DNA of 8,343 nt, taken from NCBI GenBank assembly GCA_017557475.1, contig JAFYYO010000146.1:1-8343 (forward strand), in the 5' to 3' direction. The first letter of the stretch is position 1. Each line of letters opens with the position of its first letter. The notes below the pieces were generated by a model, which was given only the letters and a program-made list of their open reading frames with translations, did no database searches and was not told where the DNA came from. The translations under genes and the position numbers were made by a program. Of the stretch, positions 162 through 8,343 are shown one piece after another. Source of the stretch: Bacteroidaceae bacterium (GTDB lineage Bacteria; Bacteroidota; Bacteroidia; Bacteroidales; Bacteroidaceae).

Positions 162-2057
<1,896 letters not shown>

Positions 2058-2149: not shown

Positions 2150-3469
2150 CTAAGGAGTACTGAGGCTGAACCTGACGTGAGTGGCGCAATGAAGCATGAA
2201 GATGAGAGCTGCTTCGATGAGGTAGGCGATGAGATAGCTGTACCAAAGCATCTGCGGAGCTGTCTTTGCCACAATCCAAAGCACGGGAATGACGGTGAGA
2301 GAGAGGGCGAAGGAGATGAAGAGTGCCATTCGATGATGGTGGTAGAGCTTGTAAACAATCATCAGGACATAGATGTAGCAGAACGGCATAAAGCTGAGCG
2401 CGAAGATGCGAAGAGCACGATTGCCTTCATCGACAAACGCGGCATCTGTCGCTCCAAACAGTTTGACGATTCCCGTCGGCCAAAGCCAAACGAAGACACA
2501 GGTCACTATCATCGCTGCCGTAATGAAGCGGAAGGCCTTTCTTATTACCATCTGAACGCCTTCGATGTCGCCCTTTCCGACTTGTATGGCACCAAGCGAC
2601 TGCAAGGTTTGGCAGGTGCCAGAGAGGAAGAGGTTGTAGACCTGAAGCAAGTTCATGCAGACAGCAAAGGCAAAGATGCCGGTTCGTCCTAAGGTGTTGA
2701 GCACGATGGTGTTTGCAGAAAGCAGCAATAAGGTCAGACTTATGGAAGCAATGGCTAAAGGCGCGCCTTGCTTAATGATAAGACCCACCCCCGACCCCTC
2801 CCTTAAAAGGAGGGGAGAAAAGGTTAGCCTTCTGCTCTTCAGCCAATGGCTCAGCAATATTGCGATGCCAATCAAATGACCTACAACGGTTGCGGCAGAC
2901 GAGCCTGCGATGCCCCAGCCAAGCCATTTAATGAAGACGATATCGAGGAAGAGGTTCGCGGCATTGTCCACGATGACTGCCAACGAGACTAGTTTCGGTT
3001 TGCCGTCCACGCCGACCATCGTCGAGAGACCCCACATCAGGATGAATGCAGGATTGCCAAGCAACAGGATCTGCATGTAGTCGCGAGCCAAAGGTAGTAT
3101 CTGATCGTTGCTGCAAAGCAGTCGAGCCGTCTGGTTTGGGAAGACGACACCTCCCACGATTGCCAGTAAGATGCCCAGCCCAACACTAAACGTCAAGGCT
3201 CTTGTAAAGAAGCGTCTGGCCTCCTGAACGTCGTTCCTGCCCAACGCATAAGCCACCAGCATACCGGCTCCCGCGTTGATGAGGAGATGCAGGGTAAAGA
3301 TGAACTGATTGATGGGCTTTGAGAGGTTGATGGCACTCACGCCGTCCTCGCTGATGAGGTTGCCCACGATGATGCCGTCAACCACATTCCCCAAGCATCC
3401 CGACAAGGCAACAAGGATGTATGCCCACAAGTAATTGTAGAATTGTTTGTTCAGTTCCGTGTTGTTCAT
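2150..3469 (-). CDS. MATE-family efflux transporter
   Basis: This inner-membrane exporter belongs to the multidrug and toxic compound extrusion family, which uses Na+ or H+ gradients to expel organic molecules. The 439-residue protein is of usual length and is almost entirely hydrophobic. It can be read as two six-helix halves separated by a polar linker near residues 208-233. The N-terminal region with VVDGIIVGNLISEDGVSAIN (29-48) and the GMLVAYALGRND stretch (69-80) are typical MATE signatures, as is the second-half counterpart SLGAIQVGKGD (291-301). The start ATG at 3469-3467 gives the normal MATE N-terminus and has no strong ribosome-binding site; the stop is TAG at 2152-2150. It lies on the same strand as the peptide synthetase, 182 bp downstream, with no clear terminator between them. 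Co-transcription and export of the synthetase product are therefore plausible but unproven. The linker (218-229) is encoded by a palindromic repeat. Substrate cannot be told from sequence. Confidence 0.94.
   Translation of the reverse strand: MNNTELNKQFYNYLWAYILVALSGCLGNVVDGIIVGNLISEDGVSAINLSKPINQFIFTLHLLINAGAGMLVAYALGRNDVQEARRFFTRALTFSVGLGILLAIVGGVVFPNQTARLLCSNDQILPLARDYMQILLLGNPAFILMWGLSTMVGVDGKPKLVSLAVIVDNAANLFLDIVFIKWLGWGIAGSSAATVVGHLIGIAILLSHWLKSRRLTFSPLLLREGSGVGLIIKQGAPLAIASISLTLLLLSANTIVLNTLGRTGIFAFAVCMNLLQVYNLFLSGTCQTLQSLGAIQVGKGDIEGVQMVIRKAFRFITAAMIVTCVFVWLWPTGIVKLFGATDAAFVDEGNRALRIFALSFMPFCYIYVLMIVYKLYHHHRMALFISFALSLTVIPVLWIVAKTAPQMLWYSYLIAYLIEAALIFMLHCATHVRFSLSTP
2783..2818 (-). 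repeat. C-rich palindromic repeat element read in frame inside the MATE gene
   Basis: CCCCTCC at 2795-2801 is the reverse complement of GGAGGGG at 2809-2815, making a 7-bp, nearly all G/C stem around a 7-nt TTAA-containing loop. It is flanked by the run ACCCCCGA. The base composition is strikingly unlike the surrounding coding sequence. On the minus strand it is translated as SPLLLREGSGVG (MATE residues 218-229), between the two membrane halves. I recognise this peptide and DNA pattern as a short dispersed repeat common in Bacteroidota genomes, usually between genes. That recognition is from memory and was not checked by search. The repeat keeps the frame open and sits where the family tolerates length change. 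Confidence 0.75.
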
Positions 3470-3651: not shown

Positions 3652-6600
3652 TCACTCGAAGAAGCCGAAGCCTCCGATGGCCGTCAGCATGCGTTCTACA
3701 TAGTCCCACGACGTGGGTGACCAGGCAAAACCGAGTCGGTAGAGAACCTGCGTAGTGTAGTCGTTGTCGCGCTCCACATCGGTGGTCTTCTGTCCGTGAG
3801 CCATGTCCTGATAAGCCAAGAGCGACGACATCTGCCCTGCCTTCTGCGGATCGGACTTCGCCTGCTCCATCGTCTCTGCAAACTCTTCCTGCTCAACGAA
3901 TCGGATACCTTCACCGACGGTACTCAAGCCGGTCAGTACGTCGCCGAGGAACTGGAAGTGAATGTTGTAAGGATGGAAGACGACGCACTCCTTCGGGCTT
4001 GTGGCGAGGAGGATGATGGCGTGTGCCACCTCGTTGATGGGCGAGAACTCGACGCGTTTGTTACGCATCGAGTACGGACAGCAACCCAGCATATTATAGA
4101 CCTTTATGCGACCCATGAACGAGTTCGTGGAGAAGTTCGCCTGGAATTCTCCGTCGGTGCTTCGGGCTGCGAGGTTGCCTACGCGCATAATCTTTGCACT
4201 CAAGCCTTGCTTGGCAACTGCATCGAGAATGAGTCGCTCAGCCATGAACTTCGAGTAGATGTACTTGTTGCCGAGGTACTGACCCATGAAGAATCGCTGC
4301 TCGGTAAAGACTTCGTCTTTCGGCGTGCCTGCCCAAAGTCCGCGCGTACTTGCTGTGGAGATGTGTACGAGGCGTGCTCCTGTCTGCAAGCAGAAGTCCA
4401 CGCATCGCTGAGCACCACCGATATTGACGTCCTCTATTTCTGTTCCTTCGCTGAAGTGCTTAACGATGGCAGCACAGTTGAAGACGGTATCAACCTGAAG
4501 GCTTGTGTCGAAGTCCTGCGTCACATCGCCGAGAATGACATGCAGACGCTTGCCGAAGAGGTCCTTGAAGGCATTGTCGAAATAGTAGAAGAGTAAAGTG
4601 CGAAGTCGGCTCTCTGCCTTCTCCTGACTCTTCGCTCGAACCAAACAGTAGATGTTCTTTGCGTCAGAATCGATGAGGTCGCGCAGGATGTGGATGCCGA
4701 GATAGCCTGTCGAACCTGTCAGCAAGACGTTGCCAAGCGGCTGACGCTCGCTACTGCGGAAAGCATCGAGTGTGTTGCCTTGCAGCAGAGCATCGATGGA
4801 GGTGTAGTCGAAATCAGCTTCTCCAGATGTTTCGGCTTCTTCGGTTTCGCCAGTAATCAGCCGTGCCAGTTGTCGAGGCGTCGGGTTGGCAAAGACATCG
4901 CCGTAAGCCACATGCAGACCAGCCTTGTCTGCCTCAATAATGACGCGAGTCACGACGAGGCTTGTGCCGCCCAGTTCGAAGAAATTATCTGTGGCTCCCA
5001 CCTTGTCCATCTGCAAGATGTCGCCAAAGATGTTGCAGAACGTCTGCTCGGTCTCATTGGCTGGAGCGACGTAGGCAGAGGTGACGGCCAGTTGCGGCTC
5101 AGGCAAAGCCTTCACGTCCGTCTTGCCGTTGGGCGTCATGGGCATCTCCTTCAGTTGCAAATAAGCTGTCGGCACCATGTATTGTGTCAGGCTCTTCGAG
5201 ATTTCTGCCTTCAAGGCATCGGGCGCAATCTCGCGCTCGGCGGTGTAGTAGGCGCAGAGGTGTTCCTTGTCGTTCAGCTTTCGGATGAGGATGACAACCT
5301 TCTTCATACCCTCCACTTTCAGCATGACATTCTCAATTTCACCCAACTCGATACGCAAGCCACGCAGTTTGATTTGGTGGTCCGTGCGGCCAAGTATGAC
5401 GACATTGCCGTTTGGCAGCCATTTCGCATAGTCACCCGACCTATAGATGCGCTCGCCATGATAGTCGATAAAGCGTTCGCGAGTCATCTTGTCGAGGTTG
5501 TTGTAGCCTCGAGCCACACCGCGACCTCCGATATACAACTCGCCTACAACACCAACAGGCAACTCGTTGCCGTCGCCATCCACGATGAACTCCTTGACGT
5601 TCAACTGCGGCTTGCCGACCGTAACAAGCTTTACATTCGTCAGCTCAGCATTGTTCGAGGCGACGGTTATCTCAGTCGGACCATAACAGTTGAAGATGCG
5701 CGCCTTCGTTGCCTTGCGCATCATGCCGAGCAACTGGTCTGAGAACTTCTCGCCACCAGCACGGCAAATGTTGACTTTCGCAATGGCATTGCAGAAATCA
5801 TCACTCGTGAGCCAAGTCTGCCAACGCGATGGTGTGCCGCTTACCATATTGATTTGTTGCTCGTTGATGAGGTTCGCGAGGTCGAGCGGGTTGTTTGCCT
5901 GCTCTTCTGTCGCAAGGATAAGCGTCTTGCCGTTGAAGTAGCACATACCGATGTCTTGCAGAGCCGCATCGAACGATATCGTGGTAACGCTCAGGATGCG
6001 CTTGGCATCGGTCAGCACAGCATTAGCAAATACATTCGCTGGATGCCCGTAAAGGTAGTTGCAAATACCTTCGTGACGCAGCATCACACCCTTAGGTCTT
6101 CCCGTCGAACCACTGGTATAAATGAGATAGGCAAGGTCGTCTGGAGTAATTGAACATTGAACATTGAACATTGAACATTCTTCCTTCATCAACTCTTCCA
6201 CGTCGATGGCCTTGTCGGCAGGAACGCTATCGAGACGGTCGGCAGTTGTGATGATGTAGCGAGCCTCGCTGTCCTCGAGGATAAGCTTCACACGGTCGGC
6301 AGGATATTCTGGGTCGCAAGGAATATAAGCCGCACCGGCCTTCAGCACACCAAAGAGTGAGAGAATCAATCGGCTTGTGCGAGGCAGCAGCAAAGCCACT
6401 CTGTCTCGTTCCTGAACGCCTCGCTGACGAAGTCCGTTCGCAATGCGATTCGTCACTTCATCCATTTCCTTATAGGTAAACTTGGCATCAATGGCAACCA
6501 ACGCCTCGTGCTCAGGCTGCGTCTGTGCAAAGTGACTGATGCAGTCGTGGAACAACTTGAAGGGAGCTTCGCCGACGGCTGTCTGACGAAGACCTTTGAG

Positions 6601-8343
6601 TTCTTCTTCCTGATTCTGGCTTACGATGGAAAGCTTCCTTACCTGTGCTTCTGGCTGCTGCATCATGTGCTCTGTGACAGCCACAATGCTTTCTGCCAAC
6701 GCCTTACCCAGTCGGTCGGAATATAGCGAGTCGTCGTACTGCACGACCACACCTCTTGACTCAATCTTGATGTTTATCTTGAACTTAGGTACATTGAGTT
6801 CCAACAACTCCTGCCCAATCGTCTTGCCATAAGCTTTATATTCCGACAGGACGCCTACCTGGTAAGCGTAAGCAATGGCAGGACGGAAGCCGAAGTCGGA
6901 AGCAATGCGGGCAAAGGGATAATCCTCGTGACGAAGCGTCTGGTCGAACGTCTCGCTCGTCTTCTGCAGGAAGTCACGGACACTGACATCATCAACGTTC
7001 AAACCGAGCGCAAGCGTATTGACAAACATGCCCACAGTGTCAGCAATCTTCAGGTTGCTGCGACCGCTGCTGACCGTACAAAGATAGACTTCGCGATTAT
7101 TTGTGTAGCGAGAGACGACGTAAGCCGTTGCTGCAAGGAACAGATGAGCTGGCGTGATGTCATGCTCGCGGCAGAAAGACGTTGCCTTAGCAAAGTCGGG
7201 CATACACACAGCCTCGCCAATGAAGCCCTGTTCGTCCTCTGTGTGACTCAGGTCGGCAGGTATCTCGCTGGCGCCTTCACAAGTCTGCAACTTCTCTGCA
7301 AAGAACTGCTGAGCCTTGCGGAACTCCTCAGTATCTTCCGCAGCCTGCTGGTCTGTCACGAAATCAAGGTAAGAGTAGCCCTCCTTCTCTATCGTTTGAC
7401 CTTCAAGCTTTGAGCATATCTGACGAATGAAGAGGTCGGCAGAACCTCCGTCGAAGACAAGGTGATGGATGTCCATCAGCAAGTGGACGCTGCTCTCTGT
7501 CTTGACAATCTCGAAGCGATAGAGCGGAGCTTTCTGCAAGTTGAAGGGCTGCACGAACTCGTTCTTGTATGCCGCCAAAGCCTCATCAGTCATCTCAGTG
7601 ACAGGAACCTCAACGGGCATACTATCCTCCAAGGTCTGGATGATTGTGTTGCCTTCTGTTGCGAAGTGCACGCTCAGTTCTGGATGACTTTCCACAACAA
7701 CCTTGACTGCTTCTGCCAGTTGCTTGGCATCTGTTCCAGAAGGCAAAGTCAGGAGATAAGGAATGTTATAGACGGTCGAAGTTGGATTCTTCAAGCAATC
7801 GAAATAGACGCCTGTCTGAGCATAGGACAAGGGAGCCTTGTCGATAGAATGGGTTGACTGAATTGATTGGGCTGCATGTGGCTGCATCAAGTTCCTCAGG
7901 ATTTCATTCTCTATGCTCTGCAGCGTTGCCGTCTTGACGAGCGACTTCGCATCAAGGGTAACACCATAACACTTGTTAATCTGCACCGCAAGTTTGATAG
8001 CGGAGATTGACGTGAGTCCTGCATAACCGAGGACAGTCGTGATGCCGAAGTCCTCGTTGTTCACGATGCCGGCAATCAGGTCGTGCAGTTCTTGTTCAAG
8101 CACATTCATCGGAGCATTCACCTCAGCAACTGTCTCTACCTTCTTCTCGGGCTTGGGCAATGCACGCTTGTTAACCTTTTGGTTTTGATTGAGAGGGATG
8201 GTATCTATCTGCATCGTGACAGCTGGCACCATATATGGCGGTTTCTCTTCGAGGATGAAGTTGTTGAGTGCTTCGATGTCTATCTTCTGGTCGCTGACGA
8301 TGTAAGCCGCAATGAACTTTCCGCCACCTGCGCCTTCCACATC
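3652..8343 (-). CDS. Nonribosomal peptide synthetase with terminal thioester reductase (5' part off window)
   Basis: This is the C-terminal 1563 residues of a modular peptide synthetase; its start lies beyond the right edge. Residues are counted from base 8340. 1-65: end of an adenylation domain with the A10 lysine (K55). 78-150: carrier domain, pantetheine site S111. 165-590: condensation domain with the HHLVFDG catalytic motif (292-298). 592-1085: complete adenylation domain with YTSGSTGRPKG (741-751), NCYGPTE (884-890), GELYIGGRGVARGY (933-946), YRSGD (966-970), LRGLRIELGEIE (992-1003) and PNGK (1070-1073). 1092-1163: second carrier, FELGGTSL with S1127. 1200-1562: thioester reductase of the NAD(P)-binding Rossmann type, with GSTGYLG (1209-1215) and the catalytic Y1360xxxK1364. 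The protein ends after the reductase, with no thioesterase, so the peptide should be released by reduction to an aldehyde or alcohol. All core motifs are intact. A heptamer repeat encodes residues 722-731. The visible order matches AusA-like dimodular synthetases. Confidence 0.95.
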   Translation of the reverse strand, partial: DVEGAGGGKFIAAYIVSDQKIDIEALNNFILEEKPPYMVPAVTMQIDTIPLNQNQKVNKRALPKPEKKVETVAEVNAPMNVLEQELHDLIAGIVNNEDFGITTVLGYAGLTSISAIKLAVQINKCYGVTLDAKSLVKTATLQSIENEILRNLMQPHAAQSIQSTHSIDKAPLSYAQTGVYFDCLKNPTSTVYNIPYLLTLPSGTDAKQLAEAVKVVVESHPELSVHFATEGNTIIQTLEDSMPVEVPVTEMTDEALAAYKNEFVQPFNLQKAPLYRFEIVKTESSVHLLMDIHHLVFDGGSADLFIRQICSKLEGQTIEKEGYSYLDFVTDQQAAEDTEEFRKAQQFFAEKLQTCEGASEIPADLSHTEDEQGFIGEAVCMPDFAKATSFCREHDITPAHLFLAATAYVVSRYTNNREVYLCTVSSGRSNLKIADTVGMFVNTLALGLNVDDVSVRDFLQKTSETFDQTLRHEDYPFARIASDFGFRPAIAYAYQVGVLSEYKAYGKTIGQELLELNVPKFKINIKIESRGVVVQYDDSLYSDRLGKALAESIVAVTEHMMQQPEAQVRKLSIVSQNQEEELKGLRQTAVGEAPFKLFHDCISHFAQTQPEHEALVAIDAKFTYKEMDEVTNRIANGLRQRGVQERDRVALLLPRTSRLILSLFGVLKAGAAYIPCDPEYPADRVKLILEDSEARYIITTADRLDSVPADKAIDVEELMKEECSMFNVQCSITPDDLAYLIYTSGSTGRPKGVMLRHEGICNYLYGHPANVFANAVLTDAKRILSVTTISFDAALQDIGMCYFNGKTLILATEEQANNPLDLANLINEQQINMVSGTPSRWQTWLTSDDFCNAIAKVNICRAGGEKFSDQLLGMMRKATKARIFNCYGPTEITVASNNAELTNVKLVTVGKPQLNVKEFIVDGDGNELPVGVVGELYIGGRGVARGYNNLDKMTRERFIDYHGERIYRSGDYAKWLPNGNVVILGRTDHQIKLRGLRIELGEIENVMLKVEGMKKVVILIRKLNDKEHLCAYYTAEREIAPDALKAEISKSLTQYMVPTAYLQLKEMPMTPNGKTDVKALPEPQLAVTSAYVAPANETEQTFCNIFGDILQMDKVGATDNFFELGGTSLVVTRVIIEADKAGLHVAYGDVFANPTPRQLARLITGETEEAETSGEADFDYTSIDALLQGNTLDAFRSSERQPLGNVLLTGSTGYLGIHILRDLIDSDAKNIYCLVRAKSQEKAESRLRTLLFYYFDNAFKDLFGKRLHVILGDVTQDFDTSLQVDTVFNCAAIVKHFSEGTEIEDVNIGGAQRCVDFCLQTGARLVHISTASTRGLWAGTPKDEVFTEQRFFMGQYLGNKYIYSKFMAERLILDAVAKQGLSAKIMRVGNLAARSTDGEFQANFSTNSFMGRIKVYNMLGCCPYSMRNKRVEFSPINEVAHAIILLATSPKECVVFHPYNIHFQFLGDVLTGLSTVGEGIRFVEQEEFAETMEQAKSDPQKAGQMSSLLAYQDMAHGQKTTDVERDNDYTTQVLYRLGFAWSPTSWDYVERMLTAIGGFGFFE
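6150..6179. repeat. Four-copy TTGAACA heptamer tract inside the second adenylation domain
   Basis: TTGAACA occurs four times head to tail (6150-6156, 6157-6163, 6164-6170, 6171-6177), all perfect, followed by TT. Read on the minus strand it encodes CSMFNVQ and then CSI, synthetase residues 722-731. This lies just before the conserved LAYLIYTSGSTG core, in a loop that varies among adenylation domains. Seven is not a multiple of three, so the tract runs through all frames and only a change of three units would keep the frame. I associate this heptamer and the peptide CSMFNVQ with repeats scattered through Bacteroidota genomes, again from memory. Confidence 0.95.

What the first reader, a model, noticed from the sequence alone, without database searches (positions are those of the whole stretch)
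3652..8343. Reductive-release NRPS with AusA-like ...A-T-C-A-T-R order: candidate maker of dipeptide aldehydes or pyrazinones
The sequence shows a complete C-A-T-R end preceded by A(end)-T, with intact catalytic residues: HHxxxDG, both pantetheine serines, the A3-A10 motifs, the GxTGxLG nucleotide site and YxxxK. Synthetases of this order, such as aureusimine synthetase AusA, release a dipeptide aldehyde that cyclises to a dihydropyrazinone and oxidises to a pyrazinone. Free peptide aldehydes of this kind inhibit cysteine and threonine proteases. A member in a Prevotella-like organism would be a host-relevant small-molecule pathway whose product I cannot name.
Basis: partly seen in the sequence, partly recalled or inferred. 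Interest (0 to 1): 0.75.

Follow-up and report, generated by a model that had tools for sequence, protein, structure and literature searches.

The report
Rumen enzyme making blocked peptide aldehydes

Summary
In detail: window 3652-8343 (-) encodes T-C-A-T-R after the tail of an A domain, motifs intact, gene cut by the window edge. AusA's order A-T-C-A-T-R does not hold: the closest relatives (91-93% identical) begin with a condensation domain, so the full gene is C-A-T-C-A-T-R. Among 306 related genes, 7 cut or split ones set aside, none has AusA's set-up; all 27 two-module genes that start with A lack the Asp that holds the amine, though they are only two pocket types. The likely product is an N-blocked dipeptide aldehyde, as ruminopeptin is, which cannot close to a pyrazinone.

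Relatives share a cluster: sensor phosphatase/kinase, STAS protein, outer-membrane barrel, NRPS, MATE exporter, often PPTase. In 6 of 16 genomes this phosphatase is the only one of its family found. A similar cluster was printed in 2010 for the rumen archaeon Methanobrevibacter ruminantium. So it is a rumen member of a known kind. Against: the first C domain does not resemble solved starter C domains. Acyl donor, residues, aldehyde and target are inferred.

The parts
8170..8343 (-). C-terminal end of the first adenylation domain (A1), with the A10 lysine motif NQNQK; the A1 core and (by relatives) the N-terminal C domain lie off the window
   Evidence: aligned to L062 residues 852-909
7879..8103 (-). 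first carrier domain T1 (GLTSIS)
   Evidence: equivalent of L062 T1 model hit 932-1006
6598..7842 (-). condensation domain C2, HHLVFDG, expected to join residue 1 to residue 2
   Evidence: Pfam PF00668, residues 168-582, 6.5e-58
5122..6534 (-). second adenylation domain A2, pocket code DAQSRGCVAK
   Evidence: Pfam PF00501 residues 604-947 and PF13193 1002-1074; code by motif anchors, columns agree with the LgrA alignment
4855..5043 (-). second carrier domain T2 (LGGTSL)
   Evidence: Pfam PF00550 residues 1101-1163
3655..4722 (-). terminal thioester reductase R, TGSTGYLG and YIYSK, expected to release the product as aldehyde
   Evidence: Pfam PF07993 residues 1208-1443; closest solved T-R pieces 6vtj 318 bits and AusA R 4f6l 179 bits
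2150..3469 (-). MATE family exporter, next gene downstream on the same strand
   Evidence: Pfam PF01554 7.6e-27; within 6 kb downstream on the same strand in 59 of 67 relatives with more than 3 kb of flank
162..2057 (+). dnaK, convergent neighbour, not counted as part of the cluster
   Evidence: NCBIfam DnaK 1020 bits, over its cut-off 648; it fell in no neighbour group shared by 3 or more loci

Best explanation
The window holds the 3' two thirds of a dimodular synthetase whose full order is C-A-T-C-A-T-R. C1 puts an acyl group (from CoA or the fatty-acid ACP) on residue 1, which A1 chooses and which is probably aliphatic. C2 joins it to residue 2, chosen by A2. R releases the chain by one hydride transfer as an N-acyl dipeptide aldehyde. 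The MATE protein next door exports it. A sensor phosphatase/kinase and a STAS protein, upstream in relatives, switch the cluster on. The product most likely acts as a reversible inhibitor of serine, cysteine or threonine proteases in the rumen. Because the N-terminus is blocked it does not close to a dihydropyrazinone. Shown: the domains in the window, the order and gene neighbours in relatives, selection. Inferred: that the window's own gene starts with C1, the acyl donor, residue identities, aldehyde rather than alcohol, export, regulation, target.
For: N-terminal C domain in 72 of the 76 loci whose gene is not cut before that point (71 in one frame, L074 on a separate frame; L034 partly cut); of the other four, L077/L079 place A0-T0 before C1 and L050/L051 start with a non-Asp A domain. 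HHxxxDG is intact in 217 of 224 N-terminal C domains, and C1 dN/dS is 0.083 (L102 v L062). Of 306 related genes (83, 207, 16; overlapping), 7 cut or split ones set aside: 187 are C-first with two A domains and Asp235; 27 are A-first with two A domains and all lack Asp235; 0 are A-first, two A domains, with Asp235. The same table holds 25 A-first, three-A genes with Asp235, so free-amine starts could be seen. In genome G154 the only PP-binding matches are the two NRPS T domains and one carrier in an 85-aa frame, so no aminoacyl loading module for C1 is found there. In a tree of 58 of 621 C domains, dimodular C1 falls with the C domain that follows the Asp-less A0-T0 of L077/L079, apart from C2. 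A PaaK-like CoA-ligase relative lies downstream in 10 of 67 loci. Gut clusters are known to give acylated dipeptide aldehydes: N-octanoyl-Met-Phe-H from a Clostridium cluster, and ruminopeptin, N-acylated Leu-Glu (PMC8518294, passages; that these synthetases are C-first is recalled).
Against: C1 itself is off the window. By profile, C1 is nearest to chain-elongating C domains (bacitracin 136, tyrocidine 135 bits) and far from solved starter C domains (7c1h 36, CDA 30 bits; the types of all four are recalled). In the tree, C domains inside four-module genes (P0012, P0020), which sit between amino-acid modules, lie on C1's side, and the C domains that follow Asp-less A domains in L050 and L090-L093 group with C2, so C-domain type does not follow the donor strictly; no support values were printed. 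Five of 224 N-terminal C domains have DY for DG and two lack the motif. No acyl-activating gene is conserved in most clusters. Four of 8 genomes have a carrier match in a longer frame outside this gene (G002 745 aa, G144 1356, G147 268, G148 1451). R domains generally reduce on to the alcohol (PMC8949500, passages). Dipeptide aldehydes of gut bacteria have been isolated as pyrazinones (PMC12327764, passages), so a free-amine product cannot be excluded. The 306 genes are not independent, and the 27 Asp-less ones are only two pocket types (23 and 4).
Confidence: 0.6

Rival explanations
1. C1 is idle or slow, so the enzyme releases a free-amine dipeptide aldehyde that cyclises to a dihydropyrazinone and oxidises to a pyrazinone.
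For: Dipeptide aldehydes of gut bacteria were isolated as pyrazinones (PMC12327764, passages). C1 evolves fastest (median identity to L062 0.615 against 0.732-0.922 for the other pieces). C1 is not close to solved starter C domains.
Against: C1 keeps HHxxxDG in 217 of 224 and is under purifying selection. The configuration that must give a free-amine dipeptide is absent from the table once cut and split genes are set aside.
Confidence: 0.21
2. The reductase carries out two rounds of reduction and the product is an N-acyl dipeptide alcohol, not a protease inhibitor.
For: R domains generally reduce the aldehyde again (PMC8949500, passages). The MxcG model of myxochelin, an R-domain NRPS, aligns over 169-1518 of the window protein at 413.5 bits, below its cut-off of 2300.
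Against: Nearest solved R pieces are 6vtj (318 bits; its chemistry was not looked up) and AusA R (179 bits), which releases an aldehyde; MxaA, an alcohol-former by recall, scores 69 bits. Similarity does not settle the electron count.
Confidence: 0.13
3. C1 takes an aminoacyl or peptidyl group from a second synthetase or a free carrier in trans, so the product is a longer peptide aldehyde.
For: C1 resembles elongating C domains, trimodular cousins exist, and 4 of 8 genomes hold another carrier match in a longer frame.
Against: G001 has only two Condensation matches, both in this gene, and G154 has no further multi-domain carrier match. MAGs are incomplete.
Confidence: 0.06

Closest known systems
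mru0068 NRPS cluster of Methanobrevibacter ruminantium M1 (PMC2812497, passages)
   Same: Two C-A-T modules with the C domain first, plus a terminal domain (called thioesterase in the text, thioester reductase in the legend of its Figure S8), surrounded by genes for two serine phosphatases, an anti-sigma factor antagonist and a MatE exporter; from the rumen. The paper itself says that the first C domain is often associated with N-acylated peptides.
   Different: Archaeal host. In the relatives here, phosphatase and kinase are one fused protein, an outer-membrane barrel is added, and a PPTase is often next door. Sequence-level orthology of the whole protein was not tested; the product of mru0068 is given as unknown.
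Ruminopeptin (Ruminococcus) and Clostridium cluster BGC0001686 (PMC8518294 and PMC12327764, passages)
   Same: Gut anaerobes, acylated dipeptide aldehydes. Ruminopeptin is N-acylated Leu-Glu, which would fit an aliphatic A1 pocket and a pocket with a basic residue in A2 (both pocket readings recalled).
   Different: Other phylum. Their sequences were not on hand, so no pocket or tree comparison was made; the C-first order of their synthetases is recalled.
AusA aureusimine synthetase (NF047350; PMC12153313, passages)
   Same: Two amino-acid modules and a terminal R domain; the parts are homologous.
   Different: AusA is printed as A1-T1-C-A2-T2-R. In relatives here a C domain comes first, scores are far below cut-off, and A2 has another pocket.
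RsbU/RsbV/RsbW partner-switching modules
   Same: SpoIIE phosphatase, HATPase_c_2 kinase and STAS protein; NCBIfam matches to RsbW (below cut-off) and anti-sigma factor antagonist (above cut-off).
   Different: Phosphatase and kinase are fused behind a PDC/Cache sensor; the output partner is unknown.

Membership tests
AusA / aureusimine synthetase | score over the NF047350 equivalog cut-off (2500 bits) | tested here: not met
   785.8 bits for the window (partial gene), 1186.7 for full-length L062
AusA / aureusimine synthetase | order A-T-C-A-T-R with an amino-acid A domain first and no C domain in front | tested here: not met
   tested on relatives, not on the window, which is cut: L062, L102, L103 start with C; 0 of the genes left after 7 cut or split ones were set aside
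AusA / aureusimine synthetase | A1 for Phe/Tyr/Leu and A2 for Val | tested here: inconclusive
   A2 code DAQSRGCVAK in 71 of 83 genes, the window included; substrate not proven
AusA / aureusimine synthetase | dedicated PPTase AusB beside the NRPS | tested here: inconclusive
   an ACPS-family PPTase lies within 6 kb downstream in 30 of 67 loci, but L019's scores 59.7 against the AusB cut-off 225; none in the window
gut N-acyl dipeptide aldehyde synthetases (ruminopeptin type) | C-A-T-C-A-T-R in one protein | tested here: met
   tested on L062, not on the cut window: two each of Condensation, AMP-binding and PP-binding, then NAD_binding_4; that this order defines the type is recalled
gut N-acyl dipeptide aldehyde synthetases (ruminopeptin type) | N-acyl dipeptide aldehyde product | not testable with these tools
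   needs expression or in vitro assay
classical starter C domain (lipoinitiation) for C1 | closer to known starter C domains than to elongating ones | tested here: not met
   profile of 15 C1 domains: bacitracin/tyrocidine 135-136 bits, 7c1h 36, CDA 30 bits (types recalled); position at the N-terminus is met
mru0068-type cluster | serine phosphatase, anti-sigma antagonist and MATE exporter beside a C-first two-module NRPS | tested here: met
   in relatives: phosphatase 54 of 64, STAS 57 of 64 upstream; MATE 59 of 67 downstream; in the window only MATE is visible; compared with the description in PMC2812497
mru0068-type cluster | full-length sequence orthology | not tested
   the archaeal protein was not on hand; only the T-R piece 6vtj (archaeal by recall and by a reference title seen) was compared, 318 bits

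The most novel reading that the evidence does not exclude
A rumen-wide family of partner-switch-controlled protease inhibitors: rumen Bacteroidota and methanogens share one cluster plan, and the Bacteroidota exchange whole A domains and starter units to vary the aldehyde residue (acid-type pocket in the window, base-type and aliphatic pockets in cousins) while keeping the two-module products N-blocked. The sensor phosphatase would then tie protease blockade to a chemical cue in the rumen.
Probability: 0.25. Interest if true: 0.65.

Novelty: new member of a known kind. Interest (0 to 1): 0.42.

Why it matters
Relatives are common in one group of Bacteroidales: 63 of 139 genomes of the genus of L062's genome, that genome included, hold a match at E <= 1e-100. 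With another query and a stricter limit, 11 of 393 genomes drawn across the order do, that genome again included; the two figures are not directly comparable. Peptide breakdown limits nitrogen use in ruminants (general knowledge), so a common secreted protease inhibitor with its own sensor module would be worth testing. Correcting pyrazinone to N-blocked aldehyde changes what a chemist should look for: aldehydes or their adducts, not pyrazinones.

Tried and rejected
AusA-like order: rejected on relatives. Rows set aside before the count: the window, L028, L034, L037, L065 and L078 (cut by a contig or window end) and L074 (split over two frames). Two of them, L037 and L074, would otherwise read as A-first with Asp235; L037 begins at base 2 of its contig, and in L074 the frame before it carries C1.

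Two distant NRPS genes from the order-wide search looked A-first in their cut loci (L115, L116). On fetching more DNA, the frame of the G206 gene begins with what reads, by eye, like the tail of a C domain, and the G248 gene has a C domain in front, so neither is a clear AusA-order exception; both are only about 29% identical to the query and outside the family.

Rule that C1 and a missing Asp235 exclude each other in all genes: rejected. It holds for two-A genes (27 of 27 A-first lack Asp235), but 25 three-A and 2 four-A genes are A-first with Asp235. One C-first gene, L052, has Glu at that place.

C1 as a classical starter C domain by sequence: not supported. C1 and C2 each matched the AusA model only at about 996-1408, so what AusA's own first ~340-420 positions are was left open.

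Naming residues from the A2 code: no table was on hand. An Arg at position 299 with no acid in the pocket but Asp235 suggests an acidic or amide residue by recalled analogy with Glu and Asp codes; this stays a guess.

Rfam search of the window: no match over gathering score. Whole genome of the window: not held. No structure prediction was run.

Literature: Guo et al. 2017 (looked up by a recalled DOI) and the archaeal PCP-R structure paper are not held. Searches for an earlier description found 47, 278, 1590, 49, 179, 27 and 29 papers and showed 20, 20, 20, 20, 15, 8 and 8; by title and start of abstract none of those shown names this Bacteroidota cluster, and the rest were not seen. The rumen survey PMC8241843 (passages) counts 934 NRPS clusters in Bacteroidaceae; the passages seen do not describe this one.

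Full report
What is in the window. The minus-strand frame 8343-3652 encodes 1563 aa and stays open to the window edge. Pfam gives T-C-A-T-R after the tail of an A domain. Against L062, dN/dS is 0.063 over 1563 codons and 0.048-0.062 in each of five domains, so the gene is under strong purifying selection. A MATE exporter follows at 2150-3469 on the same strand, and dnaK converges from the other side.

What precedes it. No genome is held for the window, so the missing 5' part was read from relatives. All 80 titles name Bacteroidia taxa, and 31 name a ruminant host or the rumen (my count). The window protein is 91% identical to L062, 92% to L102 and 93% to L103. All three encode 2415-2432 aa with C-A-T-C-A-T-R. 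Of the 76 loci whose gene is not cut before that point, 72 have the C domain at the N-terminus (71 in one frame, L074 on a separate frame; L034 partly cut); L077 and L079 have A0-T0 in front of C1; L050 and L051 have no C1.

Is the N-terminus blocked? Position 235 of A domains, an Asp, holds the alpha-amine of the amino acid (established knowledge, recalled). In a table of 306 related genes (83 including the window, 207 proteins, 16 genes; overlapping and not independent), 187 are C-first with two A domains and Asp235, 33 C-first with three, 27 A-first with two A domains and no Asp235, 25 A-first with three and Asp235, 12 A-first with three and no Asp235, 9 and 2 A-first with four (without, with), 1 C-first with Glu235, 1 single-module, 7 cut or split and set aside, 2 without R. 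The set-up that would force a free-amine dipeptide is not among those kept; two of the set-aside genes (L037, L074) would look like it only because their 5' part is cut off or on another frame. The 27 fall into two pocket types, VPVFSGFSI in 23 and VPHISG(I/V)GM in 4. The A-first genes with Asp235 have three or four modules and would not give a pyrazinone from two residues.

Is C1 active, and with what donor? HHxxxDG is intact in 217 of 224 N-terminal C domains; five have DY and two lack the motif. C1 of L102 against L062 has dN/dS 0.083. In a tree of 58 of 621 C domains, dimodular C1 falls with the C1 of L077/L079, which follows an Asp-less loading pair, and away from C2; but C domains inside four-module genes (P0012, P0020) lie on the same side, the C domains behind Asp-less A domains in L050 and L090-L093 group with C2, and the printed tree shows no support values. 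A C1 profile is nearest to elongating C domains in the PDB and far from solved starter C domains (types recalled). Carrier domains were sought in 8 genomes. In G154 the only matches are the two NRPS T domains and one in an 85-aa frame; in G001 the matches besides the NRPS are in frames of 76-128 aa; G145 and G150 are alike. G002, G144, G147 and G148 have one further match each in a longer frame (745, 1356, 268 and 1451 aa). So in four of eight genomes no loading module that could hand C1 an amino acid is seen, within the limits of MAGs. CoA or fatty-acid ACP is then the likely source. A PaaK-like protein lies downstream in 10 of 67 loci; make it a distant relative of phenylacetate-CoA ligase and F390 synthetase, below the NCBIfam cut-offs.

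What it may make. A2 reads DAQSRGCVAK in 71 of 83 genes, with DAHSRGTVSK in 5, DMKNMGTVSK in 5 and DAEGTGVDDK in 2. Apart from the shared final Lys, the first three each hold a basic residue and the last holds extra acids. By recalled analogy this suggests acidic or amide residues for the window's class and basic residues for the last. In the wider table of C-first two-A genes the last code is DAQSRGCVA in 63, and many others carry A1-like codes such as DAMFSGGIF (37). Of those 63 genes, 55 have a first code that begins DAMFSG, which looks aliphatic, also by recall; the window's own A1 core is off the window. The T-R part is nearest to 6vtj (318 bits) and then to AusA R (179 bits). R domains can stop at the aldehyde but generally go on to the alcohol (PMC8949500, passages).

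The cluster. Of 64 loci with more than 5 kb upstream, a PP2C phosphatase (SpoIIE) fused to a kinase domain behind a PDC/Cache sensor lies on the same strand within 6 kb of the NRPS start in 54, a STAS protein in 57, and an alginate-export-type barrel in 48; all three in 46, none in 4 (L006, L012, L067, L079). L012 and L067 carry parts of the module on the other side, reversed. Of 67 loci with more than 3 kb downstream, MATE follows in 59 and a PPTase in 30. In 6 of 16 genomes (G145, G146, G147, G148, G150, G154) the SpoIIE match is the only one found in the genome and lies beside this NRPS (and, for G146, the coordinates of L014); the other 10 genomes have 2-13 matches. That points to a dedicated regulator; what it switches is unknown. 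These upstream genes lie off the window and were not seen for the window's own organism.

Comparison with what is known. AusA is A1-T1-C-A2-T2-R (PMC12153313, passages); membership fails on score and, in relatives, on order. Acylated dipeptide aldehydes from gut bacteria are known, among them N-octanoyl-Met-Phe-H and ruminopeptin (PMC8518294, passages). The 2010 genome paper of Methanobrevibacter ruminantium describes a C-first two-module NRPS (mru0068) surrounded by two serine phosphatases, an anti-sigma antagonist and a MatE protein, and already links the first C domain to N-acylated peptides (PMC2812497, passages). The cluster plan is therefore in print, in another domain of life. None of the papers shown in searches names the Bacteroidota version by title or start of abstract; only part of each list was shown, and the library lacks most subscription papers, Guo et al. 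2017 among them.

Verdict. The pyrazinone reading is probably wrong. The thing is most likely a rumen Bacteroidota member of the known N-acyl dipeptide aldehyde kind, with a constant sensor-regulator neighbourhood in its relatives.

Noticed in passing
G116:C44, G088:C16, G131:C5 and others (L094-L096, L105): In a cousin class the second A domain is 72-81% identical to the A1 domain of L062 while the C1-A1-T1-C2 part is 60-65% identical, with breaks near the C-A and A-T linkers: whole A-domain exchange between positions.
   Followed up: partly
L102 against L062: Synonymous divergence is 1.6 in C1, 0.73 in A1, 0.52 in T1 and 0.10-0.18 from C2 to R, which suggests a mosaic gene from recent recombination.
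   Followed up: no
L050, L051: C1 is missing, the first A domain lacks Asp235 (VPHISGVGM), the gene between STAS and the NRPS is MFS-like by eye, and no MATE gene was grouped in these loci.
   Followed up: partly
L036:14795-19141 and L066:16130-23632: A second reductase NRPS lies downstream on the same strand (in L066 after the MATE gene), with an acid-rich last pocket (DAEGTGVDDK) that suggests a basic aldehyde residue.
   Followed up: no
L077:3402-12323, L079:5762-14770: About 3000 aa genes with an Asp-less A0-T0 pair in front of C1.
   Followed up: partly
window 5079-3655 against PDB 6vtj: The T-R part is nearer to 6vtj (archaeal by recall) than to AusA, which would fit exchange of such synthetases between rumen bacteria and methanogens.
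   Followed up: no
L012, L015, L022, L023, L026, L034, L060, L067: A PaaK-like adenylating enzyme gene sits between NRPS and MATE; it may supply the acyl starter.
   Followed up: partly
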